In this document: piece by piece, positions 7,715-52,718 of the stretch
Layout: each line of letters begins with the position of its first letter
How positions within the stretch are numbered: the stretch's first letter is position 1
From: Haliotis asinina
Lineage: Eukaryota; Mollusca; Gastropoda; Lepetellida; Haliotidae
Length of the DNA stretch: 64,000 bases
Reading direction: 5' to 3'
NCBI RefSeq assembly: GCF_037392515.1
Contig: NC_090280.1
Coordinates: 61,889,504 to 61,953,503, forward strand
The notes under the pieces: generated by a model
What the model was told of the DNA's origin: nothing
The model's database searches: none
What the model saw: the letters and a program-made list of their open reading frames with translations, nothing else
Translations under genes and position numbers: made by a program

Positions 7715-10700
7715 ATGTCCATTGTTGTAAGTATGATTACCATTGTGACATTTCTCTCTGATCATGAGGGGCGATGATACCTGGTGTTATGGTCTAGGCT
7801 GGAACATTGCTGGAAGCCCCTTTTAAGCCTGTTATATCGCTACAAACACTTGTAACAACTGTATTCTGTAATTTTGAATTTGGTCAAGGCGTTGAACCTA
7901 AGCTTCTGGTTTGATATATCAAATAACATCAAATTGTAGCCAATCGTTTACCCATCTGAACTAGAAATTAACGAGACCTGTTTAACCGCATCTGCCTTAT
8001 ACTAAGATATATCCATGAAAAGTTAACAACTACAAAAGAATTATAAAAGGGCTGAATCCAACCGCAGGTACATTCAAGTTCTAAATGCAGCATACTTGTT
8101 ATTTCAAATTTTGGCTATGTTGATATATTGTCGCCAGTGTCTGAAGGGATGGTGTAAATCCAGCTGGAGTTCATGCAGGTAGCATCAGATCATTAAACGT
8201 AGTGTTTTCTGTTCTTTCAAATTTCGGCAAATTACTGCCCATAATCACAAGTGGCTGAAGGGATGGTGTAAGTCAAGCATGGATCCATGCAGGTAGGAAA
8301 GGCATTGGCGAACTACCGCCTGGTTTTATATTGTGTTGTCCTCTATTCTTAAATTATATAGGCAAGTTATGTTATAGATTTAATTACTGATTTTACCGTT
8401 CTATCTTTGATAAACCAGTCATTTTACTGTCTTTCGTCGACAGCTTTTCGCAATTTAGTTCCATTTATTATCAATTAGTAATTTTAAGTCACGTCATGGC
8501 TGCTATCAACTTGTTTAAGACTGTGTCTGTGCTTTTCTATTTATTAAACTGTCCATCGAAGATAGCCCTCATGTTTATAGTATATATGATGTTCATTTTC
8601 ATATTCTCGTTGCGGCCTAGCTGAAATATTACCCTTGTGACGTAACATTTAAACCCTCTCTTTCAGCTTTCAAACTGTCAAATTTCCCTTTATGATGAGA
8701 AAAATTCCAACATCCTCAGCCTTTGGTGTCTTAATTTCCCAGCTTCAGAAACAATCGAGATCCTTTTACTGCGACGATTTTAAACAGCGCCAGATGACTC
8801 TTGCTCAAAGGGGTTCTGATAAGTGTTAAATCCCTGGTGACATGAGAAAAGCTAACATAAATGTCCCTATTCCCGACATCTAAAAAGCGTTGACGTGATT
8901 TTCCAGGCAAATGTTTAATTTGGCTTCCAAATGTTTGCGTGATGATGGATGTGCAGGATACACTCACTTTTGTTATAAATATATTTTGTGCAATGAAACA
9001 CTCAGTGAGTGAGTGAGTGCGTGAGTGAGTGAGTGCGTGAGTGAGTGAGTGAGTGAGTGAGTGAGTGAGTGAGTGAGTGAGTGAGTGAGTGAGTGAGTAT
9101 CCCCAGTCCCATTGGCAATAGGTCAGCCATATCGTGACTAAAAGTACGAGTTACAATAACTACATAAAAATTGTAAACACCTGTCAGCGAATGAAAGTAC
9201 AACCATACAGAATATCACAGTATCAAGAAATAAAACTAGCATCTCTCTCGAAAATTGGATTTCAAACTGACAATACTGTATAAAACGGGCTATAGATTGC
9301 CAATAATGGAAGGTATATAGGGGAAGCTATACTAAGGGCCATGGTGCTTTTCATAGCCATTGCTAATTGGATGGATCCTGGTTAGATTTATACCATCCCT
9401 TCAGATGTTAACGATTGTAGACCAACCTAGCCTAAGTTAAAATAACATATCCTATGATTAATTAATGTGGTAAGTTTAAATTTACCTCGAATGTTTTGGG
9501 ACTTACGTATTCTCTCAGGAGGAGAATAAGTTTACAGAATGTTAACCGTATTTGAGGACACAGACACTAACAGTCTCAGTTACAAATCTAAACTACAAAT
9601 CATAAAATGACATCTATTTACAAAGCATATTAATCAAAATTTGTAAATCAGTTCTATCGCTTCTATCTTAAATATTCAATGATAAAATGGCAATTAACAA
9701 TACGAAAAGGATAGTTCAATGTTTTGACATTAAAATATTTGTCCCCTGTGATGGAAATCAACACAGCAGGACATGCTTCTGTGTGATTCTTTCATGACAA
9801 AAGATACAAAACGGAGGATCCTCGCCTCTTAATAAGTACAGTGGACTCTGTATAATCACACTCACTGGAACCGGGAAAAATATCGGATAATTCAATGTCT
9901 CACTGTTTGAATACTTTCCAAACAGTCCCATACATTATAACTAGCTTATGTTATGATATCAATGCTTCTATTCTTGGAAAATATAGCAAATAAAAACAAA
10001 TTCTGTAGTTACATGTGCATGTATTGCACTGGATTTGTTATCTTCAGTGCAATATGTATAAGTGTGCTACTATCACAAGTATATTCACATTTTCATTTTA
10101 AAAAGTCCTCCATTGTAGGCGGGCGTTTCGACTCCAGTACAAAGTTCTCAGCCCGTTCACCCTATGCTTCACAGAACATACCTACATCCTCACAATGGCC
10201 ACCCAGTTTGTGAAAACGAAGGTCCAGGCGTTCTCATACTGCTAATTACCTCCCAGTTAACAAGTGCTGTGTCTAAAGAGATTACTAGTAACAGGATGTC
10301 TGTTGTCAACTGGCCATTGACAGGTTGAGTGGCTATTTTAGTCCTAAATAGGGAGGGGATGTCGCATTGTACATACTGACAGTGTCACTGGGACCATGGT
10401 GTCGGAATTTAGAATGTACATATACTATCTGTGTCTTATATTTATAGTATAAGCAACATGACTGCCACAGTTCATGCATATGGTAAGAAAATTGTGGAAT
10501 TTAAATGGAATCTAAGTCTCTGACGGTGTAATTTTGAGTGGACACTGACGGCATCTTGAGAAATGATGGCCATCTTGAATATTCAATGCCTCTCTTTTTG
10601 TATCTTATTTTTATAGTATAAGCACCATATCTGCCATTTTTCATGCATATTGTATGACAATTGTGGAATTTACATGGAATCTACGTCTCTGACGGTGTCA

Positions 10701-13700
10701 TTTTGACATGAAATTGGTGGCCATCCTGAAGAATGGCGGCCATCCTGAAGAATTTTCAATGCCTCTCTATCTGTATTATGTTTTTATCGGATAAGCAACA
10801 TACCTGCCACTTTTCATACTTGTAACATGAAAATGCATAATTATACCATTATCCGCTGGACTATATCGGATAAATCAATGTTTAAGTGATGATGATATAG
10901 CAGCACGCTGTCGGGACGCAAAACTGCATTAGAATTCACAGATTGTCGGATAATAATTCAGACGTCAGATTGAACACAGCCCACTGTATTCGTGTGTTTA
11001 TACCACGTATGACCAATGCGACAGCCGTTACTGTCACTCATTCTTACTCACTTTCACTCACTCACCAGGTAATCCTCCTTGCGTTGGCGTCCATGACGTC
11101 TGTGGCGTCGAAATACGCCAATGACTATGATCAGCCTTTGCTGTATCAGTGTCCTCGTGGGAAATCTATCGCAAGTGTACACAGTGTTCATCACAACGGT
11201 GCAGAGGACCGTCGCTATGGCTTCAGCTGTAAAACAACACCAGGACTCAGAGATTGTTCATGGCATGGTAAGTTCGTGTAATTCTGAAACAACAACTAAT
11301 TCACCAGCATTGATTGCGAGGGTGGTTACTGGTTGACGCGTTTACACGTCACAGCGAGGACCCGGGTGCAATTCCCGTTGAAACCAATTTCTGGTGTAGC
11401 CTCTCGTGATGCTCCTCAAGTGTTGCAGAAAGACGGCGGGTAAAACCATACGTACTAGAGAAGACTAATCCGTTCTCAAAATCGGGGCGTGAATATTGTT
11501 TTTTTTTTCATTTGTTTCATAGTCATAAACATAATAATTGGATATTGACAAGAACGATGTCACACAGAAATTACTATCATAGTTTACTCTTTACTTATGG
11601 GAGAGTTGGTCGGTTTGTTTAACGCTGCACTCAGTAGTCCAGCTATATAGCTACGGTTTGTAAATAATCGAGACAGGACCACACAATCCAGTGATCGGCA
11701 GCATAAGCATCGATCTACGCAACTGGGATACGCTGACATGTATCAACCAAGTCAGCGAGCCTGACCACCTGGTTCCGTTAGCAGCCTGTTGCGACACGCA
11801 TGGGTTATTGAAGACCGATTCTAACCTGGATCAAAGATTTTTAATGTTTCAAGATTTTTCAATTTTGACTTCACGTGTATCCTGTCGCTCTGTCATAATG
11901 GCATTGAAAACATGTGTGTTGTTTCTATATGTACTTTAGCCTAATATTTAAAGCGTTTGCTCGTCGCGTAAAAGACCCGGGTTCGATTCCCCAGTGATAT
12001 TGCTGGAATATTGTTAAAAGCGGCGTAAAAGCACATTCACTCACTCGTATCAAGGGAAATAACTGTGTCCGAAGCATTTTTGGATTCAAACGTTTTCTTC
12101 AGGATATGTCAACGGATTCGACGAGATAATCCTGTTTCAATGTCCAAATAATGGTGTTATCAGCGGAGTCAACAGTTACCATGACAACGGCGCTGAAGAC
12201 AGGCGATTCAAGTTCTACTGCTGTTCTATTAAAGGTGATACTGGTCAATAAAAGAGGTTTACTTACGAGTATGATCACTTAAGCCTGGTAATAACAACTC
12301 AGTGTAATTTCGTCCTTCAGAAATGGATCTGGCAAACAGTAAAATGGTATAGATTCTAAACACACAGCCTACGTGTCACTTGTCACTTGTTATGTTTTTG
12401 TGATTTTGTAAATACGTTCATCTTAATCTGTCTTAATCTCTCTAGGTACGTTCGTTATCTGACTGCGTTTGAAACCGATTCCGTTAACATGGAATTTGAT
12501 CGCTTGACATACCATTCACATCCCAGATGAATGCATTTCAACAATGTTTATGAGATTTAGGCCATTTTCTCCCCCATTTCATAATGTTGCGAGCTTAGAC
12601 GAGGTTCGAGGAAAATCGGACCCCCTTTGTTCCATTGAAGATTTAAACCATCACCTGCTATACAGTTACTACTAAACATGGCTGTTGTATTCTAAGTTTC
12701 TGAAGATATTTCTGCATCGGGTCTGGATCGAAGACTTGGCTGCTTGTTTGTCATATGTTCGTTGTACTTACTGTAAGGACCTTTTCATTGACATATTTTT
12801 GATTGATTTTTTTTATTTGGAATATTGTTGAAAGTAACCGATAGGATCGATAAACGTCACGAACTGGGTGACGTATTTGAAAAAATGTTGTTCCAAGTGA
12901 CACTCAACTCATTTCAATATCTGTTTCAGCGAAAAGACCCCTGGTAAATTGTCGCTTCGGAAACTTTGTCAATGGTTTCGATCAGCCGTTTAACTTCTAT
13001 GTGCGCTCCAGGTTCCTGAAGGGTGTTTTCAGCTATCACCACAATGGGGCCGAGTAAGTTACGGTTTTCACTAATTCACTCACCTTTCGTGACAATCAGT
13101 CACTCTTGGTGGCAATCAGTCTCTCACACATGAAGACAACCACTCACACCTGATGACAATCACTCAACCACAATTGCTGATAATCAGCCACACTTGATGA
13201 CAATCACTCATTCACACTTGATGACAATCATTCACTCACACTTGCTGACAATCATTCACTCACACTTGCTGACAGCCAATTACAAACGTGATGACAACCA
13301 GTCACACTTAGTGGCAATCACTCATTTACTCTAGATGACAATCAATCAGTCACACTTGATGTCAATCACTCACAATTGGTGACAAGCAATTACATTTGAC
13401 GAAAATCCCTCAGTCACACTTGATGACAATCACTCGCACTTGATGACCAGCAATCACTCATACTTCATGACAGTCACTCACTCAAACTTGGTGACAATCA
13501 CTCTCACACTTGATGACAGTAAATCCCTCACTTGATGACAATCGCTCACTCACACTTGGTGCTAATCACTCACACTTGATGATGATCGCTCACTCACACT
13601 TGATGACAGTAAATCCCTCACTTGATGACAATCACTCACTCACACTTGATGACGATTCCTCACTCACACTTGGTGATAATCACTCACACTTGATGACAAC

Positions 13701-13879
13701 TGCTCAGTCACAGTTGATGACAAGCAATCACTCACACTTGATGGTGACTATCAATCACTTGATCACTCTTGGTGATGACAATCAGTCAACCAGTTATATT
13801 TTGGATGTATAAACTATATTCTGTTTTGCTTTGCAGAGACAGACGCTGGCGGTTTGAAACCTGTCAACTTGGGGCATAG
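7715..13879 (+). CDS. DPT: Dermatopontin-like secreted matrix protein, gene 1 (five exons)
   Basis: Proposed exons are 7715-7726, 11069-11267, 12103-12234, 12930-13053 and 13837-13879, all with GT-AG junctions, giving 169 aa. Mini-exon 1 (MSIV) joins VILLALASMTSVAS to complete a signal peptide. The mature chain has three dermatopontin repeats: YANDYDQPLLYQCP...EDRRYGF, YVNGFDEIILFQCP...EDRRFKFYCC and FVNGFDQPFNF...EDRRWRFETC. It carries eight cysteines and ends LGA. Dermatopontins are secreted extracellular-matrix proteins, found in molluscs in shell matrix and haemolymph. Exons 2-5 are strongly supported. Exon 1 is less certain because intron 1 is 3.3 kb; the alternative start is an ATG at 11009 without splicing into exon 2. 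Intron 4 holds a ~20-bp minisatellite. AATAAA at 13922 follows the stop closely. It is the most divergent of the three paralogues. Confidence 0.85.
8110..8640 (-). repeat. Interspersed repeat family, inverted copy inside intron 1 of gene 1
   Basis: Shared segments such as 'ctgaagggatggtgtaa' and 'ccatgcaggtag' match 43860-43940. They are the reverse complement of the copies at about 9240-9800 and 42080-43030 ('ttaccatccctt.ag'). Confidence 0.45.
9002..9098. repeat. (GAGT)n microsatellite
   Basis: About 24 tetramers, with two GCGT variants near the start. It is followed by 'ggtcagccatatcgtgac', so it is the expanded tail of a reverse-oriented repeat element, not an isolated microsatellite. 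Confidence 0.95.
9180..9810 (+). repeat. Interspersed repeat family, forward copy in intron 1 of gene 1
   Basis: Collinear with about 42080-42560 and about 22350-22720. Shared parts are 'aaaacgggctata-a', 'ggttagattta.accatccctt', 'gggacttacgtat.ctctca', 'agccactagcaatctcagtta' and 'attcaatgat.aaatgg'. Ends are undefined, and the (GAGT)n at 9002 may be its tail. Confidence 0.55.
10425..10850. repeat. Tandem repeat of ~180 bp, about 2.3 units
   Basis: Each unit contains 'ttttatagtataagcaac', 'ctgccac.ttcatgcata', 'attgtggaatttacatggaatctacgtctctgacggtgt' (split and diverged between units) and 'caatgcctctct'. It lies in intron 1 of dermatopontin-like gene 1. Confidence 0.7.
11318..11450 (+). 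mobile_element. tRNA-type SINE, diverged, in intron 2 of gene 1
   Basis: It has an A-box-like 'gagggtggttactggttgac', a B-box-like 'gacccgggtgcaattccc', and 'caatttctggtgtagcc'. The A-rich join is kept but the (ACTC)n tail is lost. Confidence 0.5.
11612..11840 (-). mobile_element. SINE (second family), diverged, in intron 2 of gene 1
   Basis: The order 'aacgctgcactcagtagtccagctatat', 'gtaaataatcgag', 'atcgatctacgcaactggga' and 'catgggttattgaagac' matches the reverse of the reference element. Confidence 0.6.
11948..12046 (+). mobile_element. tRNA-type SINE with internal deletion
   Basis: The head has 'aaagcgtttgctcgtcgcg' and 'gacccgggttcgattcccc'. It joins directly to the tail 'gatattgctggaatattgtt' and 'ttcactcactc', so the middle (about 40 bases) is missing. 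Confidence 0.65.
13065..13795. repeat. ~20-bp minisatellite filling intron 4 of gene 1
   Basis: The unit is roughly CACTCACACTTGATGACAAT with many variants (gatgacaat, ggtgacaat, gctgacaat). It occupies almost the whole intron between 13054 and 13836. Intron 4 of gene 2 holds a different, GGTGATG-type array, so the arrays arose independently. Confidence 0.9.
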
Positions 13880-13921: not shown

Positions 13922-13927
13922 AATAAA
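13922..13927 (+). promoter_or_regulatory. Polyadenylation signal, dermatopontin-like gene 1
   Basis: AATAAA lies 43 bases after the stop codon. Genes 2 and 3 have it 31-32 bases after theirs, so the short 3' UTR is a shared trait. Confidence 0.75.
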
Positions 13928-14605: not shown

Positions 14606-15614
14606 CTAAAGGGAAATCTCACGGCGTGGACTAAACTCACTGCAATTAAATTATATACTTACAGAAAAAAATCGGTGCATAAAATGGGTGGGGTAGGGTG
14701 ATGATGATTTTTATGGAGTTGCATGTGCAATGTGAATGACACACACGCACACACCAATTAATGTACAAAGTAACAGACCCCACCTTCTGGTCATGTACAA
14801 AATTAATTACCAATCCCAAGAACATGTGTACATGTGCATTTTTATTATTGATTTTATAAACAAAACAAAAAATACCACCTGAAACCCCAAAGCAATATAG
14901 CGCACAGGTACCTTATTTCAGTAGTATATAATGTAACATTAAATCTCTTTAGTTTTGCAGACGAGTACCTTCAAAGTGTGTGTTTCAAAACTTTGAACAT
15001 TTTGTTAATGGGTTTCATATAGACTTCTCTGGCAATGCAATGTGCGATTAGCAATATCCACTGTCGAGAACGAACCGGATGTGGCAACTCAAATGGTGTT
15101 GTGTCAATTAGAACATCTGACACCATCCCACAGGGACGTGCCAAACAGTGTGTCCTGGTGTGGGGAAAACAGCTGCGAGATCATATCTGTATGGGGTCCT
15201 TTTAACTCTTCATATCAAACTTCAATTTAATGAAACTGAAAAACGACCTTAGAGTAGACGCATGACAACGCAATACATACTTAAAAAACATTACCGTACT
15301 TAACAACACAACTGATCATTGTGGATTCTAAACTGCGTGGGATAATAATGTGCATTGTGAATAAGCATATGAAAATAGTTAAATATCATTTCACCAAAAG
15401 CACGGTGCATTGATATCCTAATGCAAGACGTTAGAAGCACTGTGCATTAATTTCTTTATGAAAAAAACATCTTCGTTAAAAACACATTATATTAAGGAGT
15501 TGGTTTGCTTCTCTTTCTGAAAAACACGATGAAAGCCTTTTCCACATATAGAAGAAATGTTTGCTAAAACAGAGTGCATTGTTTAATTATGACGATACCA
15601 TGAGTACATATCAT
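14606..15614. other. Gene-free interval before the satellite
   Basis: No gene is recognised. The last ~230 bases contain phrases such as 'cgttagaagcact', 'ggtgcattgatatcc' and 'atgaaaaaaacatc' that resemble degenerate units of the adjacent satellite ('agttacgaagcac', 'ggtgctcatcag', 'atcataaaaaaac'). Confidence 0.4.
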
Positions 15615-17855
15615 AAAAAAACTTGGGGTGCTCATCAGTTACGAAGCACATCTCCATCATAAAAACTTGGGGTGCTCATCAGTTACGAAGCACATCTATA
15701 TCATAAAAACACTTGGGGTGCTCATCAGTTACGAAGCACATCTCCATCATAAAAACTTGGGGTGCTCATCAGTTACGAAGCACATCTATATCATAAAAAA
15801 ACTTGGGGTGCTCATCAGTTACGAAGCACATCTATATCATAAAAACTCGGGGTGCTCATCAGTTACGAAGCACATCTCCATCATAAAAACGTGGGGTGCT
15901 CATCAGTTACGAAGCACATCTATATCATAAAAAAACTTGGGGTGCTCATCAGTTACGAAGCACATCTCCATCATAAAAAAAAACTTGGGGTGCTCATCAG
16001 TTACGAAGCACATCTCCATCATAAAAACTTTAGGTGCTCATCAGTTACGAAGCACATCTCCATCATAAAAAAACTTGGGGTGCTCATCAGTTACGAAGCA
16101 CATCTATATCATAAAAAACTTGGGGTGCTCATCAGTTACGAAGCACATCTCCATCATAAAAACTCGGGGTGCTCATCAGTTACGAAGCACATCTCCATCA
16201 TAAAAACGTGGGGTGCTCATCAGTTACGAAGCACATCTATATCATAAAAAAACTTGGGGTACTCATCAGTTACGAAGCACATCTCCATCATAAAAACTTG
16301 GGGTGCTCATCAGTTACGAAGCACATCTATATCATAAAAAGACTTGGGGTGCTCATCAGTTACGAAGCACATCTATATCATAAAAAAACTTGGGGTGCTC
16401 ATCAGTTACGAAGCACATCTCCATCATAAAAACTTGGGGTGCTCATCAGTTACGAAGCACATCTATATCATAAAAAAACTTGGGGTGCTCATCAGTTACG
16501 AAGCACATCTCCATCATAAAAACTTGGGGTGCTAGTCAGTTACGAAGCACATCTATATCATAAAAAAACTTGGGGTGCTCATCAGTTACGAAGCACATCT
16601 CCATCATAAAAACTTGGGGTGCTCATCAGTTACGAAGCACATCTATATCATAAAAACACTTGGGGTGCTCATCAGTTACGAAGCACATCTCCATCATAAA
16701 AACTTGGGGTGCTCATCAGTTACGAAGCACATCTATATCATAAAAAAACTTGGGGTGCTCATCAGTTACGAAGCACATCTATATCATAAAAAAAACTTGG
16801 GGTGCTCATCAGTTACGAAGCACATCTCCATCATAAAAACTTGGGGTGCTCATCAGTTACGAAGCACATCTATATCATAATAAAAAAACTTGGGGTGCTC
16901 ATCAGTTACGAAACACATCTCCATCATAAAAACTTGGGGTGCTCATCAGTTACGAAGCACATCTATATCATAAAAAAACTTGGGGTGCTCATCAGTTACG
17001 AAGCACATCTCCATCATAAAAAAAAACTTGGGGTGCTCATCAGTTACGAAGCACATCTCCATCATAAAAACTTTAGGTGCTCATCAGTTACGAAGCACAT
17101 CGCCATCATAAAAAAACTTGGGGTGCTCATCAGTTACGAAGCACATCTATATCATAAAAAACTTGGGGTGCTCATCAGTTACGAAGCACATCTCCATCAT
17201 AAAAACTCGGGGTGCTCATCAGTTACGAAGCACATCTCCATCATAAAAACGTGGGGTGCTCATCAGTTACGAAGCACATCTATATCATAAAAAAACTTGG
17301 GGTACTCATCAGTTACGAAGCACATCTCCATCATAAAAACTTGGGGTGCTCATCAGTTACGAAGCACATCTATATCAAAAAAAGACTTGGGGTGCTCATC
17401 AGTTACGAAGCACATCTATATCATAAAAAAACTTGGGGTGCTCATCAGTTACGAAGCACATCTCCATCATAAAAACTTGGGGTGCTCATCAGTTACGAAG
17501 CACATCTATATCATAAAAAACTTGGGGTGCTCATCAGTTACGAAGCACATCTCCATCATAAAAACTTGGGGTGCTAGTCAGTTACGAAGCACATCTATAT
17601 CATAAAAAAACTTGGGGTGCTCATCAGTTACGAAGCACATCTCCATCATAAAAACTTGGGGTGCTCATCAGTTACGAAGCACATCTATATCATAAAAAAA
17701 CTTGGAGTGCTCATCAGTTACGAAGCACATCTATATCATAAAAACTTGGGGTGCTCATCAGTTACGAAGCACATCTCCATCATAAAAAAAACTTGGGGTG
17801 CTAGTCAGTTACGAAGCACATCTCCATCATAAAAACTTGGGGTGCTCATCAGTCA
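15615..17855. repeat. 44-48-bp satellite array with ~1-kb higher-order period
   Basis: About 48 near-identical units of the form CTTGGGGTGCTCATCAGTT / ACGAAGCACATC / TYYATCAT / A(5-9). Two subtypes (tcCAtcat and taTAtcat) largely alternate, and poly-A length is the main variable. Rare private variants recur 1042-1043 bases apart: 'tttaggtgctc' at 16031 and 17074, 'ggtactcatc' at 16261 and 17304, 'gctagtcagt' at 16531 and 17573. This shows duplication of a block of more than 20 units. Each unit can pair GTGCT with AGCAC across a 12-base loop. The ORFs through it are repeat artefacts. Confidence 0.97.
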
Positions 17856-27479: not shown

Positions 27480-27677
27480 AATATTTCCTGCAGTCTGCGC
27501 TTGCCAGTTACACATTCGCCCTCTCTCTGTGCTGGTATCAGTGGGCGGAGTCACTGTTACTTGCCGCCAACCACAACGTGCATGAGGTGCCAGTTAAAAG
27601 TGATATATGTGTATATATACAAGCGGAACACCCTCCTGGAGTCCGAGTATACCAGGACCCTCAACCCGTATACCAGT
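27480..27677 (+). promoter_or_regulatory. Promoter and 5' UTR of dermatopontin-like gene 2
   Basis: This ~200-bp stretch is strongly conserved with 48787-48984. It includes 'tgggcggagtcactgt' (GC-box-like), 'gccgccaaccacaacg' (contains a RUNX-like ACCACA), 'gccagttaaaagtg', and TATATATA at 27612-27619, exactly 66 bases before the ATG in both genes. Transcription would start about 30 bases after the TATA. An ORF crosses it but the paralogue breaks it, so it is regulatory, not coding. Confidence 0.65.
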
Positions 27678-30600
27678 ATGCTCACTGTAAGTATAGTAAG
27701 ACCCAAGGCTTCAGTTATGGGAAATAACCGCAATTGGGAATAGTATGTGAAACCTTTCAGTCTGCATTTAAGGCTCTTCTGATGTTTTATAAATGAGTCC
27801 TATTCCTGTTTCTTAACTTATTTTCATAGGAAAATTCCATATCTTAAAATCATTCAGTTCGATTTTTCATCTTTGGAAAAGTATTGGTAGCAAAAACGTG
27901 TTCTTTTAATCATTATATTTTCTGTATTACCTCAAGAGACAAATATTGCTATTAGAAATACATTCCAAAATACTTCTCAGTGTTTGCTTTTAACTCTTTG
28001 GAAAACTGTAAGTAACACGGATTCCTATTACAACTGGAAGAACTAACTGACTTCTAATAGGTGTGTACTGAAAAGATGTGTTAATGTAAAATCATGTGTG
28101 TACGATCTTCTATCACATTGTTTGAAAATAAAATATAAGAATTATATGGGTAGCCAAGTGCCTAAAGAGTTGGGTCGTCATATACCAATCTGACACGAAG
28201 CCCATTTCTGATGTTCTCCTCCTTGATATGGCAGGAATATTTCTGAATGTGCTTAAAAGAAAACTCACTCACTGTAACGATTATCAAAAGTTCTTTTCGG
28301 CAATAAGCGCTTGAAAACATATCAAACTGCGTGAATAACAACACAATATGACCATGAACACTAGTACAGTCTAACTGTATTAATAGCTCTGGTGCAACGT
28401 TGCACCACAGACATCTCACGATAGAGATCAGAACCTGCAAGTTTCAGACATTGAGCCCAGTAAGACAACTGCGGTAAGAAATATTATAGAAGTATACCAT
28501 GCCAAGAGAGTGGTATTCCTGCGAACAAAACTAAAAAACAACATGTATTGGATGCATGTTTCATTGCTGTGGAAGTTCATTTTGTCAGCATTTGTTTGTT
28601 TTATGGCTGCCAGTTGACATTGTTTTCAGACTGGGTTTCTTCTGCTGTCGCTTGTCTCTGTCGTGACGTCATACGTCAACGACTTTGACAAGCCTTTGCT
28701 GTTCCAATGTCCTCGAGGGCAGTCCATTGCTTCTTGGGAAAGCTATCACAGCAACCATCATGAAGACAGACGCCATAGGTTCACCTGTAAGAGGACACCA
28801 AGACTGGGGGGATGCCAGTGGTATGGTAAGTGGCATCCACGAAGCGTCTTCAATACTAACATAAGACAGTGAAAATGCACACAAGAGTGACTCTTTGGTA
28901 TTAGTTAGGGAACCACCTTGCCCAGTGTTCACTTAGAAATATTGAAAGGGATATTACTGACATATCATTTAGGCTGGGTAGGAGCAACAATACACCAATT
29001 TCAAAATTAACGCTATAGGAACCGTACAAGGATCTTCGTGGAATTCAAGGACTTCACGGCCTTCTGACCGTGACATACCACTGTTTCTCTCATGGCCTTG
29101 ATTTTTTAAATTTCTGGAGTGAGTGAGTGAGTTAGTTTAGTTTTACGCGGCACTCAACAATATCCCAGCTATATGGCGGTGGTCTGTAAATAATCGAGTC
29201 TGGACCAGGCAGTCCAGTGACCAACAACATGAGCATCGATCTGCGCAATTGGGAACCAATGACGAAGTCAGCGAGCCTGACCACCCGATCCCGTTAGTCG
29301 CCTCTTACGACAAGCATAGTCGCCGTTTATGGCAAGCATGGGTTGCTGAAGGCCTATTCTACTCCGGGACCTTCACAGGTCCCTACTCTGTGGAGAACTA
29401 CTGTATATATACATGTTTTTAAAACTATCTTGTGTATCCATTTTGGGACTCTACAACAACTAAATGGAATCCTGTTTTAACTGCCTTTTCAAAAATGTAA
29501 AATATGCCATTTGGATGAAATAATCGCCGGCCTGGAGGCCCAGCGCAGGTTATTATTGCATCGGAACGGCCGTTTCGAATAGCTGCAGGCCCTTGTAACC
29601 TTCAGTACATTTTAACTGGAATCTTTTCCTTGGCTTTTGTTCTTTCCTACTTGAACGTTCGTGAATCATCCATGATCTATCATGTTTTCACACCCTGGTA
29701 TTTCCGCAGTTTCTGCATAGGAATGTCGATAACAGTCTTTAATAAATTAAAACAACCTCTCTGCGGTTCGTCAATTGATTTTGTGGAAACAGTGTGGAAT
29801 TCTGCAAAGTGTAGTTTATTTTATTGGTTTCACTTTAACAGCATGGGCCTTCAGATTCCATTCCGGGCCGGTAGATTTTAAAGCGGCTAGCGACAGCAGG
29901 TCCTGATGGCCAACGGGTAAATTAAAGTATTGCAAACACTGCATCCGGCAACAATTATATTTGTATATCGTTTCAACTGGTCGCCATCATTGTCATAAAT
30001 GTTTACAAGTTATAATATTTTACGGTAGAATGCTTCGTTTATAACTGAACAACAATAGATTTGCAGTTCTTGTTTAAACAGGATGGTGTGTACGGGATGT
30101 CTACCAGTTCTTGGAACCTGCATGCATAACTTTGCTCTAGTAAATCCGGTGAAATATTGTATGCTAACAAAAGTAGGGAAGACCCCAAGAAACCTCAGAT
30201 CTACATATCCCAGTGAAGTAACACAGACGCAGAGTGTTTAAGATTAAAGTTGATTAGTTATCAAAAAAGATATTATTTGGAAACTCGAGATTCTTACTTT
30301 AATCATGTGTAAATATGTCGGAAAGAGCATGCAAAATCTCGAAAGCAAGCCCGTAAGATCGTTAGAGAATCACTCAAACTGAAACCATAAGCCACGTTCA
30401 GTAAACACATGTGTATTTGAATCTTACACCATTCGTGGCCTTATCCTCATCAAAAGCTTCAAATTAGGCACTTCAGTAACCGGGATTGTTTCTATTAAAG
30501 TGCCTCAATCTTACGCGCATTCTGATTGACTTGTACTTTTGCACATGAGATCCATCGAGAGAGGGGCAAGTCTTATTTTGAGTTACGGATAGGGCCGAGA

Positions 30601-33600
30601 GCTACCTCCTTGGAAAGACTATTTTTATCAAAGTACCGCAATCCTAACGCGAATTCTGATTGGTTTGACGTATTTTCACACATTCCGTTCACTGAGATGG
30701 CGAGGAGGCTATTTGTAGTTGACGGAAAGAGGCAAGTGGTGACCAGTATTTGAAATAATTTCAGAGGGACTCGAGTAGGTATTTGGCTTATCACGGAACA
30801 ACACGAGTAGATCATGAATGGAGAGTGAGCTGCTGATAAACTCGCCATCACCCAATACATACAGGATACTAAATGACCTCTAGTTTAATACCATTTTTAT
30901 TAAACGAGTGAATGATTTGGTATCATTCTCGCTTTCACTCGTTTGATACTACATCTTTCACGAGTTTAATGAAAATGGTATTTCACGGAAGCGAGTACAT
31001 CTAACACAAAATGATAGAAACTCCGGCTACAGTCTGAGCACTCCAGTTTTCCTCAAGTCAAACAAGGTCCAGTACCACTGCACCAGCGGCATTAGCATTG
31101 TGACGTCATAACTCTGAACCCTTATGACGTCATACTTCTAACGGTATTTCACTAGTGTAATATTGCCGTAAAAATATTTGCTTGCAGTATCTTCGGCCTA
31201 CCTTTAGAACACAGCACCACAATTTCTCGTAAGGACGTTCCCAGCCGTAGGTCACATATCAGTGAGACAGGCAACCAGTTTGCGACAGCTAACCGACATT
31301 GTTGCACACTGTGCAAATTTAGCTAGTCATTCCTGTGACGTCACAGAAATGAACGGGAAGAGTCGAATTAGTTGCGGACTATTACGAAAGTTACGGGTAG
31401 ACTTGGTGCGTCGTGCTTTCAATCTGCTGACGGTTGCCGAATGGTCCCGATATCATTTGGCACGATCGCCCCATTCCGTAATCTACAAGACACCATGTTG
31501 TGTTGAATGAGCCGATATGGTTCGAACTGAAAACGATTGTTGACGTCAGGCGTCAGACGTTGATTTCACGGTGCATGCATGAATGATTGACGTGCTTGTA
31601 TAAAAATGATTGTGTGCTTTCGTGACAGATAAGTGTTGCAGGGAACGCAGTAAGGATAATGTGGATCGCGCAAAGGAATGAGTGAGACATGGGCATGTTT
31701 GGTGACGGCACGAGGGTGAGTTAGACTTCGAATCATTATTGACAATATGTAGATCTGGAGGTGAAAGTTGCTGGAGGCCGATTTCCCCCACCCCAAACTT
31801 TCGACATTAAACCATTTCATCGTTTATTTAACTTTTGATAAATTTGGTCTCCCGTTTTCTTTGTGAACAAAGTATTAAGAATGGAAAAGGAAAACAATTG
31901 GTACTCATGCATTTACCTACTATTTTGGATTAGGTCCCTTACCCTGGACCCTAACCCTAAACCTAAACCTAACCCTAATCCTAACCCTTGGAATAATTCT
32001 AATAAATACGCTTACCGAGTCGGCACGAAAATGGCTGACGTATCCAGTGTAGTCTTACCAGTTCGAAAAATAAATATGTCCTTGTAATGGTTCAAATTAC
32101 TGAATGACAAAGATATATATGTATATTAGTTTACAGTTATAATTCATTTAATCCAAATAGTTACGTTTGAAACCGAAATATAGAATATGTTTAGATTATT
32201 TTAACTGGCCAAAACAGCGAATAATAAATCATGGCAAAATGTGACCAATGTAAGTCATTCTTACTAAATCTAAAAATACAAAATATATAATTACACAAAA
32301 TATAACACCTCAGCACCTCTCAATACAAAGAAATATGAGCATATTAGTCAAAAAAAGAAAGAAAAAATTGCGCATCCGCCGGGAACTACTACTGGAAACT
32401 CGCAACATCGTTGGGTTTCTGTAATGACATGGCTGGTAGAGATGAAACATCAGTGAGCGGAGCTTATACGCACTCGCTGAGCTTGACGACCTTGTTGCTA
32501 TGCCAGCGTCATAGGGCATTGTTTCAAGAACGTGCTTTTGAACAAAATCACCTGCAGTTACGTAAAATAGTATTATGACGTGTCTCTAAAGTTTGTGGTG
32601 CTGTATTCTAAAGGTAGGCCGAAGAGGAGCTATCTTCCACGGTCGACTAATATATCATCCAATCTTTCTTTCAGGTTACTTGAACCACTTTGACCAGGAA
32701 ATATCTTTCCAATGCCCCAAAAATGGCGTCATTAGCGGCGTCAACAGCTTCCATAGCAACCATCACGAAGACCGGCAATTTAAGTTCTACTGTTGCTCCG
32801 TGAGATGTAAGTCAAACATGGTCTCACATAACTGTTCATATTCTTGTTTCCGGAATATGTACTCTTTTACACAGGTCACGCCATCCACACATATGTTCTA
32901 TCCTCAGAAAATGAGAAATGTGATTGTTGACAAGAATGGTACACTTTTGGGATTTGAATTCCAGGTACTGATTTTATGTACTCACTGTATAAGTGGTAAA
33001 TTTAATGGCTTCGTTTAGTTTTACACCTCTTTTAGCAATATTCCAGCAATAACACGGAAGGGTACGCCAGTAATGGACTTCACATATTGTGTCCATTTTG
33101 GGAATCGAACCCGGGTCTTTGGCGTCACGAGCTAACGCTGTCACCACTACGCTACCTCACAGCCCCTCCCCTATAATTGGGATGAAGACAGATATTGATG
33201 TGATTATATACGTGCTTTAACGTGTCTATTTCAGATAGAAAATTGGCGCACTGTGACACAACTAACTATCTCAACTGGTGGGATAAAAAGCTAACCTTCA
33301 GAGTGCCCGCCGCGCATTTCCTAACGGGAGTGTACAGCATTCACCACAACCATTACGAGTATGTACATCATCTGCCCGATGCTTTCTGATGTATTCAGAA
33401 GTTAAACAAACTTTACTATCAACGTAAATTGTAATGCGAAATCGAAATAATCGTAGCAACAAGAAAAATATTGATATTACAAGGGTTTGCTTTGAAAAAC
33501 TTGAAACCATGTGAAAAAGAATTTTTTTTTCGATTTTAGAAAATACTTTTATGAAGCCAAAAAGTGCCTCTTTGTTGATATAATCTTATTTTTCTACCCT

Positions 33601-34157
33601 GAAATCATTCGTTATGAGAATTATTTGTATGTTGTTTTCTTCTCCTTTTTAAATTGTCTTTCTCTTGATATATCTGTCGCTATTTCAAGTGCTTTTATTG
33701 TTCAATTTCGCATCTTTGCAAAAAAATTTTCTCGCCTTTTCTATTATTGTCCCGTTATTTAAGACATGAGCTCGTTTCTTCCCGTAACTTGGACATCAAT
33801 AACTGAAGTAACACAACAAACACATATGGTGGCGGTAGCGGTGGCGCTAGTGCTTGTATTGCTTGGGAAGGGTTGAGGTGGAAGGTGATGCAGATGGCGG
33901 TGATGAAGATGCAGGTGATGCAGGTGGCGGTGATGAAGATGCAGGTGATGCTGGTTGTGAGGGTGATGGTGATGCTAGTGGCGGTGGTGATGGTGATGCT
34001 AGTGGCGGTGGTGACGATGATGGTGGCGGTGGTGATGGCGATGGTGATGCTAGTGGGGGTGGTGCAGGTCATGGTGCTGATAGTGACGATGATGATCATG
34101 TAACTTTTCTGTTTCAGAGACAGGCGTTGGAAATTTCAAACCTGCTTGCTCCACTGA
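27678..34157 (+). CDS. DPT: Dermatopontin-like secreted matrix protein, gene 2 (five exons)
   Basis: Exons are 27678-27686, 28630-28825, 32675-32806, 33235-33358 and 34118-34157, all GT-AG, giving 166 aa. Exon 1 encodes only MLT, which splices to TGFLLLSLVSVVTS to complete a signal peptide; the mature chain probably begins YVNDFDKPLLFQCP. Three repeats end in EDRRHRF, EDRQFKFYCC and EDRRWKFQTC, with eight cysteines at the same places as in gene 1. The third repeat opens with an unusual NYLNWWDKKLTFRVP. Dermatopontins act outside the cell in matrix assembly. Intron phases and the 132- and 124-nt exons equal those of genes 1 and 3. Intron 2 (3.8 kb) has been enlarged by a SINE and repeats relative to gene 3 (0.9 kb). 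No disabling change is seen. AATAAA is at 34188. Confidence 0.88.
28145..28277 (+). mobile_element. tRNA-type SINE, very old, in intron 1 of gene 2
   Basis: 'gggtagccaagtgcctaaagagttgg', 'gaagcccatttctgatgttctcctccttgatatggcaggaata' (shared with the paralogous copies), and 'aaactcactcactg'. Copies at 48286-48419 and 49695-49837 occupy equivalent positions, so it predates the duplications. Confidence 0.55.
29117..29382 (-). mobile_element. SINE (second family), near full length, in intron 2 of gene 2
   Basis: It runs from (GAGT)n through 'agttttacgcggcactcaacaatatcccagctatatgg' to 'gggaccttcacaggtc'. The paralogous intron of gene 3 lacks it, so it inserted after the duplication or was lost there. 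Confidence 0.8.
30887..30982. repeat. Inverted repeat, 26-bp arms
   Basis: The arms at 30887-30912 and 30957-30982 match at 24 of 26 positions (AATACCATTTT-Y-ATTAAAC-...-GTGAA). The spacer of 44 bases also contains gagtgaa/ttcactc-like text. It lies in intron 2 of gene 2. Confidence 0.75.
31946..31990. repeat. Interstitial telomere-like tract (CCCTAA)n
   Basis: About seven hexamers of CCCTAA/ACCTAA/TCCTAA type. The animal telomere repeat TTAGGG is therefore read on the minus strand. It sits within intron 2 of dermatopontin-like gene 2. Confidence 0.85.
33012..33170 (-). mobile_element. tRNA-type SINE in intron 3 of gene 2
   Basis: In reverse it shows 'gggaatcgaacccgggtctttggcgtcacgag' (B-box region) and 'gctgtcaccactacgctacc' (A-box region), with 'agttttacacctcttttagcaatattccag' as the tail. 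The equivalent copy in gene 3 is at 51614-51767, so it predates the duplication. Confidence 0.8.
33868..34085. repeat. GGTGATG-type minisatellite in intron 4 of gene 2
   Basis: Repeats of 'ggcggtgatgaagatgcaggtgat' and 'ggtgatgctagtggcggt' fill the 3' part of intron 4. An Asp/Gly/Ala/Ser-rich frame crosses it but is not needed for the gene. Confidence 0.85.
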
Positions 34158-35779: not shown

Positions 35780-36049
35780 TCAAAGAATGATAGCTCTACG
35801 TTATTATTATTGCGAAATGTTATAGCTACATTTATTTATGGGCAGATATGAAGTGAAATCCAAGTTCATTTGCAGTTTAAAACCATAAGTGAAAATTATC
35901 TAGTAGTCCACGGACACGTGAGATACCATTATTTGATTGTCCGAAATAATACTGACTTGTCCCAGGTGTCGGGCGATGGGGTTTTTTAACCCCCGCAATA
36001 GCAACGACAGACTAGAGAAATAACCTGCAACAGCTTCATGATAAAATTA

Positions 36050-37790: not shown

Positions 37791-37796
37791 ACAAAA

Positions 37797-46392: not shown

Positions 46393-46897
46393 AGAAAACT
46401 TAAGAAAAGATAATTGTTTTCAATGATAAACTCACCGTATATATCTTAGATAACGCATATTAATAAGATATCAAACAATGAACTCTTTGTAGATCAGTCG
46501 ATAGCAGCAGAAAGCTTTGTAATTAAATTCAAGATGCACTGTTTTCAATTTCTTTCCGTTGTCCTGTATAAAGTTGGACAGTTAGACATCACCATGACAG
46601 GCAAGGCTCACATAAAAAGGAATCTGACACAGTCTTTAGGATTTATTTCAGTGCTCTGTAGGGTTAATAAATGTTACAATTAAGATGACATTCCGAGTTC
46701 AACAGGCATAACTACAAAACATTCATTTATCGAATGCGTAAAATTCACAACATAGATATTATGTTTTTTGCGCTAAAACAAAAAGACAATTATTTTAAAG
46801 ACAGTGTGGAAAAAATAGGTCTTTAGTTGAGATTTAAAAAAGCAGAGAGACTGAGATATCAATGAAATTACTGAGTCTACGTGTAGCTGATGCTGGG

Positions 46898-47791: not shown

Positions 47792-47818
47792 CTGAAGATC
47801 CTCAGTCTGCATGCCATT

Positions 47819-47827
47819 ATGCGCACT
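47819..47827 (+). other. Second candidate first exon of dermatopontin-like gene 3
   Basis: ATG-CGC-ACT followed by a strong donor GTAAGTATAG, aligned with exon 1 of gene 2 (ATG-CTC-ACT) and the main exon 1 of gene 3 (ATG-ATC-ACT). The downstream intron sequence is also shared ('cttcagttatgg', 'gggaatagtatgtgaaacctttcagtctgcatt'). It would keep phase 0 and give MRT before the same signal peptide. The upstream promoter is lost to a microsatellite, so it may be silent. Confidence 0.5.
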
Positions 47828-48285
47828 GTAAGTATAGTAACTCCCAGTTCTTCAGTTATGGGGAAAAACTGCAATCGGGAATAGTATGTGAAACCTTTCA
47901 GTCTGCATTGAAATCACTTTCTCTTCTGATGTTGTGAAAATGAGTCCTATTTGTGTTTGTTTAACTTCTTTCATTGGGAAATTCTAAATCTTAAAATCAC
48001 TCTGTGCTTGATTTCTCCCTCCTTGAAAAAAACAATGGTAGCAAAAAAAAACATGTTGATTTTATCATTATATTTCCTCATAAGGAAAATGTTGGTATTC
48101 GAAATACTTTCTAAAATACTTCTCAGTAAAACAGATTTCTATTATAACTCTAAAAGACAATGCTGGAGGTAAACATTGACTATTAATAGGTGTGTATTGG
48201 AAAGATGTGTTCAATGTAAGATCCTATGTGTGATATTTCCTAGCAATAATTTTATTCAAAAATAAAATATAAGACTGATCGGGAC

Positions 48286-48419
48286 AGTTGGGTAGCCAAG
48301 TGTTTAAAGAGTTCGTTCGTCAGATACCATTCAGGTAGGAAGCCCATGTCTGATGTTCTCCTATTTGATATGGCAGGAATATTTCTGAAAGTGCTCAAAA
48401 GAAAACTCACCCGCTGTAA
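48286..48419 (+). mobile_element. tRNA-type SINE, old, in the extra first-exon unit
   Basis: 'gttgggtagccaagtgtttaaagagttcg' and 'gaagcccatgtctgatgttctcc' match 28145-28277 position by position. Confidence 0.5.
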
Positions 48420-48786: not shown

Positions 48787-48984
48787 AACATTTCCTGCAG
48801 TCTTGGCTTGCCAGTTACACATTTGCCCTCTCATTGTGCTGGTGTCAGTGGGCGGAGTCACTGTAAATTGCCGCCAACCACAACGAGCATGAGGTGCCAG
48901 TTAAAAGTGTTATATGTGTATATATACCAGCGGAAAACCCTCCTGCAGACCGAGTGTACCACTACCTTCAACCTGCATACCAGT
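48787..48984 (+). promoter_or_regulatory. Promoter and 5' UTR of dermatopontin-like gene 3
   Basis: Aligned with 27480-27677, with the same GC-box-like 'gtgggcggagtcactg', 'gccgccaaccacaacg' and TATATATA at 48919-48926, 66 bases before the ATG. A TAA at about 48865 breaks the frame that is open in gene 2, showing the conservation is not for protein. Confidence 0.65.
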
Positions 48985-51900
48985 ATGATCACTGTAAGTA
49001 TAGTAAGGCCTAAGTTTCTTCAGTTGTGGGAAATAATGGCAGTCGGGAATAGTAAATAGAAAATTCTAAATCTTAAAATCATACTGTGCTTGATTTCTTC
49101 CTCTTTGGAAAAGTATTGGTAACGAAAATCGTGTTAAATTTACCATTATATTTTATACCATTATATTATATACCATTATATCAGTCGATCACCGTTTATC
49201 CGGACGCTTTGGTTTCACTCCAAAATTGTCCGGATAGCGAGACGTACGGTTAACTGGATCAAACACGCAAAATATGAAAATCAAGTGAACGCAAAAAAAA
49301 AAATCATGTACGTATATCAATAAATGAACAGTCAATAGTAATAACAGTGATTCATCATAATATATAAGTGTACCGATAATACACGGAAGGCGGAACGCAG
49401 GGTACCATTTGTCAGGTTGTCTTGGACGTAATCATGTAGCGTGTAGAGCTTCAGGTGGTAAGTTAGTATCTATGGGAATGGTTGAAAATTCGCGCTTCCG
49501 AGTCCGGAAGCGCAGGGTACGGTTAAGCGAGTACAATTAATGAACGCAAACGGCCCATGTACAACATAATACAAACAAATATTATGATAATGACAGATGG
49601 GAGAACCTGAGGGGTCGACTCTATTCGAAACACCTTCTAAAATCCTATTTGTAAAATTTCCTAGCAATCATTTTAATTAAAAATAAAATATAAGAATTAT
49701 CGGGACAGTTGGATAACCAAGTGTTTAAGAGTTCCGTAGTCAGATACCAGTCAGGTACGAAGCCCATTTCTGATGTTCTCCTCCTTGGTATGGCAGGAAT
49801 ATTTCTGATAGTGCTCAAAAGAAACCTCACTCACTATAACAATTATCAAAAGTTCAGGTATAAAATATATCGGCAATAAGCGTTTGAAAACATAACATAT
49901 TGCGTGAATAACAACATAATATGGCCATGGACACTAGAACAGTCTAACTGAATTAATAGTACGGCGTTCTACCACAGACATCGCACGATAGAGATCAGTA
50001 CCTGCAAGTTTCAGAGAGACCTAGTAAGATAATTGCGGTGAGAAATATTATACAAGTATACTATGCCAAGAGAGTGGTATTCCTGAAAACAAAACTAAAA
50101 AATAACATGTATTGGATGCATATTGCATTGTTGTGGAAGTTCATTTTGTCAGCATTTGTTTGTTTTATGGCTGGCAGTTGACATTGTTTTCAGACTGGGT
50201 TTCTTCTGCTGTCGCTTGTCTCTTTCGTGACGTCATACGTCAACGACTTTGATAAGCCTGTGGTGTTCCAATGTCCTCGAGGGCAGTCCATTGTCTCTTG
50301 GGAAAGCTATCACAGCAACTACCATGAAGACAGACGCCATAGCTTCACCTGCCAGCGGACGCCAAAACTGGGGAAATGTCAGTGGTCTGGTAAGTGACAT
50401 CAACGAAGCGTCTTCAATACTAACATAAGACGGTGAAAATGCACACAAGAGTGACTCTTTGGTATTAGTAGGGGAACCGCCTTGCTCAGTGTTCACGTAG
50501 AAATATTGAAAAGGAGATCACTGACAGTCACGCTGTATAGGAGCAACAGTACACGGATCTTCACGGACCTCAGACCTTCATATATCAGTGTTTCTCTAAT
50601 GTCCACAGTGTTTAAATGTTGATTAGTTATCTAAAAGGACAGTATTTGGAAACTCGAGATTCTTACTTTAATAATGTGTAAAGATGTCGGAAACCGCATA
50701 CAAAATCTCGAAAGCAAGCCCGCAAGATCGTAAGAGAATCACTAAAACTGAAACCATTAGCCACTTTCAGTAAATATATGTGTATTTGAATCTTACACCA
50801 TTCGTGGCCTTATCCTCATCAAAAGCTTCAAATTAGGCTCTACAATTTAATTAGCTTTGTTCTTTACAAAGTAACAATGACGATATATATATTTTGACGG
50901 ATTTTAAAACAATCACATGCCGTAGCTGACTGAAGTAATCAGGATTATATCAATCCTTACGCGCATTCTGATTGACTTGTACATGAGATTCTTCGAGAGA
51001 GGAGCAAATCTTCTGTGAGGTTACGAAAGGGAAAGATTATTGTTATCAAAGTACCCCAATCCTAACGCGAATTGTGATTGGTTTGACGTATTTTCTCAAA
51101 TTCTGTTCTCTGAGATAGCGAGGAGTCTATTTGTTGTTTTCGGAAAAGGGGACGTGGTGACCAGTATTTGAAATCATTTCAGAGGAGTATGAGTAGGTAT
51201 TTGGTTTGTCCCGGAATAACACGAGTAGATCATGAATGGAGAGTAACTGCTGATAAACTTGGCATCAACCAGTTACGTCCAATCTTTCTTTCAGGTTACG
51301 TGAACGACTTTGACAAGCCAATTTCTTACCAATGCCCCAACAATGGCGTCATTAGCGGCGTCATCAGTTTCCATAGCAACCATCACGAAGACCGGAGATT
51401 TAAGTTCTACTGTTGCTCCGTGAGACGTAAGTCAAACATGGTTTCACGTAACTGTTCGTGTTCTTGTTTCCGGAATATGTACTCTTTTACACATGTCACG
51501 TTCTATCCTCAGGAAATGAGAAATGTAATAAGAATGGTACACTTTTAGGATTTCAGTTCAAGGTATTGATTTTAAATACTCACTGTATAAGTGGTAAACT
51601 GAATGACATAGTGTGTTAGTTCTACACCTCTTTTAGCAATATTCCAGCATCAAAACGGAAGGGTACGCCAGTAATGGACTTCACACATTGTATCCATTTT
51701 GAGAATCGAACCCGGGTCTTTGGCGTCACGAGTTAACGCTGTCATCACTACGCTACCTCACTGCCCCTGTAATTAGAATGAAGACAGGTACAGATGTGAT
51801 TACATATGTGCTTTAACGTCTCTTTTTCAGATAGACATTTGGTGCACTGTGGCACAACTGACTATCTCAACTGGTGGGATAAAAAGCTAACCTTCAGAGT

Positions 51901-52718
51901 GCCCGCTGCGCATTTCCTAAAGGGAGTGTACAGCATTCACCACAACCATTACGAGTAAGTACATCATCTGCCCAATGCTTTCTGATGTATTCAGAAGTTA
52001 CACAAACTTTACTTTCAATGTAAATTCTAATGCAAAATAGCAATGATTGTAGTAAAAAGAGTGAGTGAGTGAGTGAGTTTAGTTTTACGTCGCACTCAGC
52101 AATATTCCAGCTATATGGCGGCGGTCTGTAAATAATCGAGTCTGGACCAGACAATCCAGTGATCAGCAACATGAGCATCGATCTGCGCAATTGGGAACCG
52201 ATGACATGTGCCAACCAAGTCAGCGAGCCTGACCACCCGATCCCGTTAGTCGTCTCTTACGACAAGCTGAGTCGCAGTAAAAAGAAATATATTGATATTT
52301 CAAGTTTTTCAAATAACTTGAAACAATGTGGGAAAAATATTCTTTTTCGATTTTAGAAAATATTTCACTGAAGCCCAAAGATGCCACTTTGTTGATATAA
52401 TCTTATTTTTCTACCCTGAAATCATTCGTTATGTGTACTATTTGTATATTTTTTAAAGCTCGGGTTTCTTCTTTTTAAACTGTCTCTATCTTGATTTCAA
52501 GACTAGTGCATTTAATGTCGAATTTTGTATCTTTGCAAAACGTATTTTCTCGTCTTTTCACTTGGCGATGGTTATGATTGTGGCGGTGAAAGTGAATTTC
52601 AAAGGTGGGTTATCCCTTAGAATACCCTTGGACGTTACAACCAGTTTGGTGTAATTGCCAGTAACTTTTCTGTTTCAGAGACAGGCGTTGGAAATTTCAA
52701 ACCTGCCTGCTCCACTGA
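48985..52718 (+). CDS. DPT: Dermatopontin-like secreted matrix protein, gene 3 (five exons)
   Basis: Exons are 48985-48993, 50194-50389, 51295-51426, 51831-51954 and 52679-52718, all GT-AG, giving 166 aa. MIT joins TGFLLLSLVSFVTS to form the signal peptide. The mature protein starts YVNDFDKPVVFQCP and has three dermatopontin repeats (EDRRHSFTC, EDRRFKFYCC, EDRRWKFQTC) with the same eight cysteines as gene 2. The last repeat and C-terminus (NWWDKKLTFRVPAAHF to LLH) are nearly identical to gene 2, whereas repeats 1 and 2 carry several charge-changing substitutions. An alternative first exon lies at 47819. Intron 4 received a SINE (52061-52276) after duplication. AATAAA is at 52750. No disabling change is seen. 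Confidence 0.88.
49182..49530. mobile_element. Possible pogo/Tigger-like non-autonomous element
   Basis: It begins CAGTCGATCACCGTTTATCC, a form typical of pogo-type terminal repeats, and continues 'ggacgctttggtttcactccaaaattgtccggatagcgag'. It is absent from the paralogous position near 27.9 kb. The right end, around 'tacggttaagcgagtac', is not a clear mirror of the left. Confidence 0.3.
49695..49837 (+). mobile_element. tRNA-type SINE, old, in intron 1 of gene 3
   Basis: Same insertion as 28145-28277 by position and sequence ('ttggataaccaagtgtttaagagttcc', 'gaagcccatttctgatgttctcc'). Confidence 0.5.
51614..51767 (-). mobile_element. tRNA-type SINE in intron 3 of gene 3
   Basis: Paralogue of 33012-33170, with the same flanks and the same reverse B-box 'gagaatcgaacccgggtc'. 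Confidence 0.8.
52061..52276 (-). mobile_element. SINE (second family), 5'-truncated, with 10-bp target-site duplication
   Basis: AGTAAAAAGA at 52051-52060 is repeated at 52277-52286. The paralogous site in gene 2 (about 33450) is empty. The element is intact from (GAGT)n to 'acgacaagctgagtcgc' and lacks the last ~60 bases (its own 5' end), as expected from incomplete reverse transcription. Confidence 0.92.

What the first reader, a model, noticed from the sequence alone, without database searches (positions are those of the whole stretch)
7715..52718. Three-gene dermatopontin cluster with a hidden mini first exon
All three genes make sense only if a first exon of 3-4 codons (MSIV, MLT, MIT) splices in phase 0 into the middle of the signal peptide. 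Exon lengths 132 and 124 nt, phases, eight cysteines and short 3' UTRs are identical across the cluster. Standard gene finders would probably miss the 9-12-base coding exons and misplace the starts. A start exon this short, with the signal peptide split by an intron, is unusual and easy to overlook.
Basis: partly seen in the sequence, partly recalled or inferred. Interest (0 to 1): 0.75.

Follow-up and report, generated by a model that had tools for sequence, protein, structure and literature searches.

The report
Abalone dermatopontin gene cluster, short start exon
An abalone-type genome carries a row of similar genes for a secreted matrix protein, each starting with only three or four codons before the first intron; the gene models hold up, but such short starts are a known pattern and not a surprise.

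Summary
Three intact five-exon genes lie on the + strand (169, 166, 166 aa); all 12 introns are GT-AG, phases 0,1,1,2, with exons 3 and 4 of 132 and 124 nt. All match Pfam Dermatopontin (E 6e-47 to 3e-50). The start exons (MSIV, MLT, MIT) are well supported: TATA + ATG + 2-4 codons + GTAAGT occurs at just these three ATGs, 0.083 expected per strand. Genes 2 and 3 have no other Met. A Haliotis discus hannai transcript primer fits the spliced junction, not the intron.

Corrections: only the coding part is 9-12 nt; the exon is probably 40-45 nt with 5' UTR. The cluster has at least four genes, the fourth 6-10 kb before the window. Four of five NCBI-labelled Haliotis rows already start at the leader. 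Phase-0 introns at codons 4-5 of signal peptides are published for insect cuticle genes (PMC1626468).

Verdict: an ordinary tandem-duplicated secreted matrix or agglutinin-like family. A degenerate extra exon-1 copy at 47819 is a minor new detail.

The parts
7658..7665 (+). TATA-like box of gene 1
   Evidence: 49-51 nt between box and ATG
7715..7726 (+). gene 1 exon 1, coding part (MSIV), donor GTAAGTAT
11069..11267 (+). gene 1 exon 2 (rest of signal peptide, repeat 1)
12103..12234 (+). gene 1 exon 3, 132 nt (repeat 2)
12930..13053 (+). gene 1 exon 4, 124 nt (repeat 3, first part)
13837..13879 (+). gene 1 exon 5, coding part with stop; AATAAA at 13922
27612..27619 (+). TATA-like box of gene 2
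   Evidence: 58-60 nt between box and ATG
27678..27686 (+). gene 2 exon 1, coding part (MLT), donor GTAAGTAT
28630..28825 (+). gene 2 exon 2
32675..32806 (+). gene 2 exon 3, 132 nt
33235..33358 (+). gene 2 exon 4, 124 nt
34118..34157 (+). gene 2 exon 5, coding part with stop; AATAAA at 34188
47797..48300 (+). degenerate copy of exon 1 plus the 5' part of intron 1 (ATGCGCACT|GTAAGTATAG at 47819), promoter side replaced by a CA/CG simple repeat
   Evidence: 74% identity to the upstream gene over 536 columns, 72% to gene 2 over 507, 80-87% to gene 3 in three shorter pieces
48919..48926 (+). TATA-like box of gene 3
   Evidence: 58-60 nt between box and ATG
48985..48993 (+). gene 3 exon 1, coding part (MIT), donor GTAAGTAT
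50194..50389 (+). gene 3 exon 2
51295..51426 (+). gene 3 exon 3, 132 nt
51831..51954 (+). gene 3 exon 4, 124 nt
52679..52718 (+). gene 3 exon 5, coding part with stop; AATAAA at 52750

Best explanation
This is a tandem array of at least four dermatopontin genes in an abalone-type (Haliotis) genome, three of them in the window. Each has its own TATA-like promoter and a short first exon (probably about 40-45 nt, mostly 5' UTR) whose last 3-4 codons open the signal peptide. A phase-0 intron splits the signal peptide, and four more exons encode a protein of about 150 mature residues with three repeats and eight cysteines. The protein is probably secreted and acts as an extracellular matrix, shell-matrix or agglutinin (haemocyte-aggregation) protein. 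Shown here: gene structure, family, no alternative Met in genes 2 and 3, the same start exon in the upstream gene, and a like candidate in one distant paralogue. Inferred: transcription start, exon length, secretion and function.
For: Intact spliced models. Pfam DERM well over cut-off in 3 of 3. Exon-1 pattern only at the three predicted ATGs, 0.083 expected per strand. The upstream gene has TATA + MLT|GTAAGTATA. Distant paralogue C11:41.26 Mb has a candidate MPFM|GTAAGT with TATA, then AG|VYVLVALATVCLSSAV in phase 0. Haliotis relatives begin MLTIAFLLL or MMFPTAFLLL in 5 of 6 rows. The H. discus hannai 'Dermatopontin 3' primer reads TCCCT|ACTGCGTTTCTGCTG: 13 of 15 bases agree with the start of exon 2 of genes 2 and 3, and the five before it agree in 4 of 5 with the end of exon 1 (TCACT) but in 2 of 5 with the intron end (TTCAG). 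A pattern of the exon-2 start with its AG (two degenerate positions) is found 3 times in the 1.14 Gb genome, at the upstream gene and genes 2 and 3.
Against: No RNA from this species was examined. The upstream gene and genes 2 and 3 are recent duplicates: their 300 nt upstream differ by 0.12-0.20, no less than many of their introns (0.10-0.32), so their likeness in exon 1 is weak independent evidence. For gene 1 an in-frame ATG at 11009 lies in an ORF (10901-11281) that runs into exon 2, so a start inside intron 1 is possible there. For the other three distant copies sought (two on C11, one on C16) no well-supported exon 1 was found. Function rests on family knowledge.
Confidence: 0.92

Rival explanations
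1. Translation starts elsewhere: gene 1 begins at the ATG at 11009 upstream of exon 2, or transcripts start inside exon 2, and exon 1 is not used.
For: Gene 1 has an open frame 10901-11281 with an ATG 60 nt before exon 2.
Against: Genes 2 and 3 have no Met other than residue 1, and an in-frame TGA lies 13-15 nt before exon 2 (same in the upstream gene). The 11009 start would put 20 residues before the hydrophobic stretch. Gene 1 has its own TATA + ATG + GTAAGT.
Confidence: 0.04
2. An upstream non-coding exon exists and the short exon is internal (a true microexon), for example using the CACAG before the gene 1 ATG as acceptor.
For: TTCACAG immediately precedes CATGTCC in gene 1.
Against: TATA-like boxes sit 49-60 nt before the ATG in 3 of 3 genes (a further TATATG at 68 nt in genes 2 and 3).
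Confidence: 0.04
3. The orphan exon-1 copy at 47819 is a used alternative first exon of gene 3.
For: ATG and a perfect donor are kept; it lies 1.2 kb upstream of gene 3 exon 1.
Against: Its promoter side is a simple repeat with no TATA-like box at the tested spacing, and it has diverged to 72-74% identity from two of the intact copies.
Confidence: 0.07

Closest known systems
Haliotis dermatopontin / hemagglutinin-amebocyte aggregation factor-like proteins (H. rubra, H. rufescens, H. discus B6RB40)
   Same: Family, cysteine pattern and leader; 57-78% identical to gene 2; 167-169 aa in 5 of 6 rows, 194 in P0001.
   Different: The upstream gene and genes 2 and 3 group together (100/99), so they look like duplications in this lineage; gene 1 is a deeper branch.
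Limulus 18-kDa hemagglutinin/amebocyte aggregation factor (P0024)
   Same: Same Pfam domain, 44% identity to gene 2.
   Different: 172 aa; its activity is taken from the title of a paper cited in PMC7747718 (reference seen), not tested.
Biomphalaria and Lottia shell-matrix dermatopontins
   Same: Family; found in gastropod shell matrix (PMC3374290, passages read).
   Different: Location of the present proteins is not known.
Drosophila/Tenebrio cuticle genes with a phase-0 intron at codon 4-5 of the signal peptide (PMC1626468)
   Same: Phase 0, position 4 (upstream gene, genes 2 and 3) or 5 (gene 1), in genes for secreted structural proteins.
   Different: There 80 of 88 are the only intron of the gene; here there are four introns. 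No sequence relation is claimed.

Membership tests
Dermatopontin (Pfam PF14704 DERM) | Profile match above curated cut-off | tested here: met
   160.1, 168.1 and 170.8 bits against 28.3, 3 of 3
Dermatopontin (Pfam PF14704 DERM) | Conserved cysteines | tested here: met
   8 Cys in each of genes 1-3; in 27 homologues 5 Cys columns are invariant and 3 nearly so (these are chosen relatives, window genes not included)
Dermatopontin (Pfam PF14704 DERM) | Three internal repeats | tested here: met
   Exons 2, 3 and 4 cross-match each other by tblastn; model of relative P0002 has three similar sets of strands, mean pLDDT 93.2
Dermatopontin (Pfam PF14704 DERM) | N-terminal signal peptide, secretion | tested here: inconclusive
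   Hydrophobic leader seen by eye after splicing and matched in relatives; no signal-peptide predictor was run
Dermatopontin (Pfam PF14704 DERM) | Matrix binding, shell-matrix location or hemagglutination | not testable with these tools
   needs protein work
Start-proximal phase-0 intron class in signal-peptide genes (PMC1626468) | Phase-0 intron at position 4-5 | tested here: met
   Position 5 in gene 1, position 4 in genes 2, 3 and the upstream gene, on predicted splice sites
Start-proximal phase-0 intron class in signal-peptide genes (PMC1626468) | It is usually the only intron (80 of 88 in Drosophila) | tested here: not met
   Four introns per gene

The most novel reading that the evidence does not exclude
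The promoter + 5' UTR + 3-4 codons form a detachable start module, set off by a phase-0 intron in abalone dermatopontins and able to be copied on its own. The orphan copy at 47819 would be one such copied module, and exchange of modules could rewire expression of these matrix genes.
Probability: 0.1. Interest if true: 0.4.

Novelty: new member of a known kind. Interest (0 to 1): 0.18.

Why it matters
Correct starts matter for annotating secreted proteins, since a missed start exon loses the signal peptide and can hide the protein from secretome screens. The cluster is also a clear local example of recent duplication of a matrix or immune-type gene in an abalone lineage. Neither point changes general understanding.

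Tried and rejected
Positive selection: dN/dS among the upstream gene and genes 2 and 3 is 0.53-0.61 by NG86 (dN 0.075-0.098, dS 0.124-0.161) and 0.56-0.71 by YN00; introns differ by 0.10-0.32 (rough alignments). Ratios below 1, so no case for positive selection.

Exon 1 of the C11 15.87 Mb, C11 16.02 Mb and C16 copies: no well-supported candidate. At C11 16.02 Mb one possible start, MDLLRT before GTAAGT, has a good donor score (6.4) and reads on into the leader, but its only TATA-like word is 10 nt before the ATG. In these three copies exon 2 also begins in mid leader, so a start exon is expected but unproven. The C1 48.9 Mb copy was read at one exon only. Weak tblastn pieces at 18661 and 46527-46708 are not supported as gene remnants; 46618-46748 resembles DNA about 0.55-0.7 kb before gene 2 (70% over 140 columns). 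Two searches for molluscan dermatopontin exon structure gave listings in which I saw no such paper; I opened no paper for it.

Full report
What is there. The window is G000:C1:61889504-61953503 of a 1.143 Gb genome in 159 contigs. Sequence relatives place it in or near Haliotis; no tool names the species and I do not. Gene 1: 7715-7726, 11069-11267, 12103-12234, 12930-13053, 13837-13879 (169 aa). Gene 2: 27678-27686, 28630-28825, 32675-32806, 33235-33358, 34118-34157 (166 aa). Gene 3: 48985-48993, 50194-50389, 51295-51426, 51831-51954, 52679-52718 (166 aa). All 12 introns are GT-AG; phases are 0, 1, 1, 2 in each; each protein has 8 cysteines; AATAAA begins within 45 nt of each stop. Pfam DERM matches all three far above its cut-off.

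Is exon 1 real? By composition: a TATA-like box, 30-75 nt, ATG, 2-4 sense codons and GTAAGT occur at three ATGs on the + strand, all of them the proposed starts, at none on the - strand, and on average 0.083 times per shuffled strand (60 shuffles). The pattern was written after the exons were known, and genes 2 and 3 are duplicates, so count this as two independent hits. By necessity: genes 2 and 3 contain no other methionine, and an in-frame TGA stands 13-15 nt before exon 2. By copies: a fourth gene upstream of the window (C1:61879263-61883342) has the TATA-like box, ATGCTCACT|GTAAGTATA and coding exon lengths 9, 196, 132, 124, 40. It is a recent duplicate of genes 2 and 3, with the 300 nt upstream differing by 0.12-0.20, much like the introns (0.10-0.32), so that likeness alone shows no selection. 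A distant paralogue at C11:41.26 Mb offers MPFM|GTAAGT with a TATA-like word 79-81 nt before the ATG and, after an AG acceptor, VYVLVALATVCLSSAV in phase 0. In three other distant copies (two on C11, one on C16) exon 2 begins in mid leader, but no exon 1 with both a good donor and a well-placed TATA-like box was found. The own-genome search found 21 matches and reports counts as lower bounds.

Evidence from relatives. Of 74 proteins, six are named Haliotis rows. Five begin directly at the leader: MLTIAFLLL (H. rubra P0003) and MMFPTAFLLL (H. rufescens P0002, P0005, P0006; H. discus P0004). One, P0001 of H. rubra, has 27 residues before MKLTITLLLL. Five of the six carry an 'ncbi' source label; P0004 does not. 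PMC4661900 (one section and one passage read) lists an RT-PCR primer for an H. discus hannai 'Dermatopontin 3' transcript, TCCCTACTGCGTTTCTGCTG, with RPKM 2683, 2021 and 980 in large, medium and small animals. Its last 15 bases agree in 13 with the start of exon 2 of genes 2 and 3 (ACTGGGTTTCTTCTG). Its first five agree in 4 of 5 with the end of exon 1 here (TCACT) and in 2 of 5 with the intron end before exon 2 (TTCAG). That is what splicing at this junction would give. It is indirect: that species' gene was not read, five bases are few, and the section does not say how this primer pair performed (6 of the paper's 34 tested transcripts, this one not among them, gave consistent profiles by both methods).

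How short, how odd? With TATA-like boxes 49-60 nt before the ATG and the usual spacing of about 30 nt from box to start (recalled), exon 1 is about 40-45 nt including 5' UTR. Nielsen and Wernersson (PMC1626468; [quoted passage not shown] Drosophila Sgs1-3-7-8 glue genes have first coding exons of 19-31 bp with a phase-1 intron in the signal peptide (PMC10835880, passages read). So the arrangement is known, though here the gene has four introns where the insect ones mostly have one.

Relations within the cluster. The upstream gene and genes 2 and 3 are 90-92% identical in coding DNA; NG86 dN is 0.075-0.098 and dS 0.124-0.161. The tree groups them with strong support inside a Haliotis group, with gene 1 branching below (84/86); 6 of 14 inner branches are open, and the long Lottia and Limulus branches are unsure. 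An 18-base pattern with two degenerate positions, spanning the exon-2 acceptor, matches only at these three genes in the assembly.

A leftover. At 47797-48300, 1.2 kb before gene 3, lies a copy of exon 1 and the first part of intron 1 (74% to the upstream gene, 72% to gene 2, 80-87% to gene 3 in shorter pieces), with ATG and donor intact and a simple repeat where the promoter should be. I take it for a relic of an older duplication; use as an alternative first exon is possible and testable.

Function. From papers (PMC7747718 and PMC3374290, passages read): dermatopontin is found from sponges to humans with roles in cell-matrix interaction and matrix assembly, and it occurs in gastropod shell matrix; the Limulus hemagglutinin and amebocyte aggregation factor is cited there as a relative. 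A model of the H. rufescens relative P0002 is confident (mean pLDDT 93.2) and all-beta with three similar parts. Structural neighbours are too weak to add function. I commit to a secreted matrix or agglutinin protein; which of the two could not be tested here.

Verdict. Observation confirmed; interpretation right about the models, overstated about rarity and invisibility. Ordinary biology, useful for annotation.

Noticed in passing
47797-48300: Degenerate orphan copy of dermatopontin exon 1 and part of intron 1; ATG and donor kept, promoter side a CA/CG simple repeat.
   Followed up: partly
L009/L010, C1:61879263-61883342 (before the window): Fourth intact dermatopontin gene of the same structure, so the cluster has at least four members.
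   Followed up: yes
15608-17853: Long minisatellite, period 44 with a 90-nt higher-order period, about 50 copies of the short unit.
   Followed up: no
5931-7032: 31-nt tandem repeat, about 36 copies, 0.7 kb upstream of the gene 1 start.
   Followed up: no
52059-52275, 29117-29385, 2804-3082, 35532-35782, 54561-54829, 63830-64000 and others: A dispersed repeat of about 170-280 nt, roughly 80-95% alike, inside introns of genes 2 and 3 and between genes, on both strands; looks like a short interspersed element.
   Followed up: no
38306-38686: Piece matching an endonuclease-reverse transcriptase domain (PF14529, E 8.9e-11), probably a retrotransposon remnant.
   Followed up: no
502-1548: Open frame of 348 residues with no Pfam match at E 0.01.
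   Followed up: no
C11:15.87 Mb, C11:16.02 Mb, C11:41.26 Mb, C16:46.66 Mb, C1:48.90 Mb: Further diverged dermatopontin-like copies in the same genome.
   Followed up: partly
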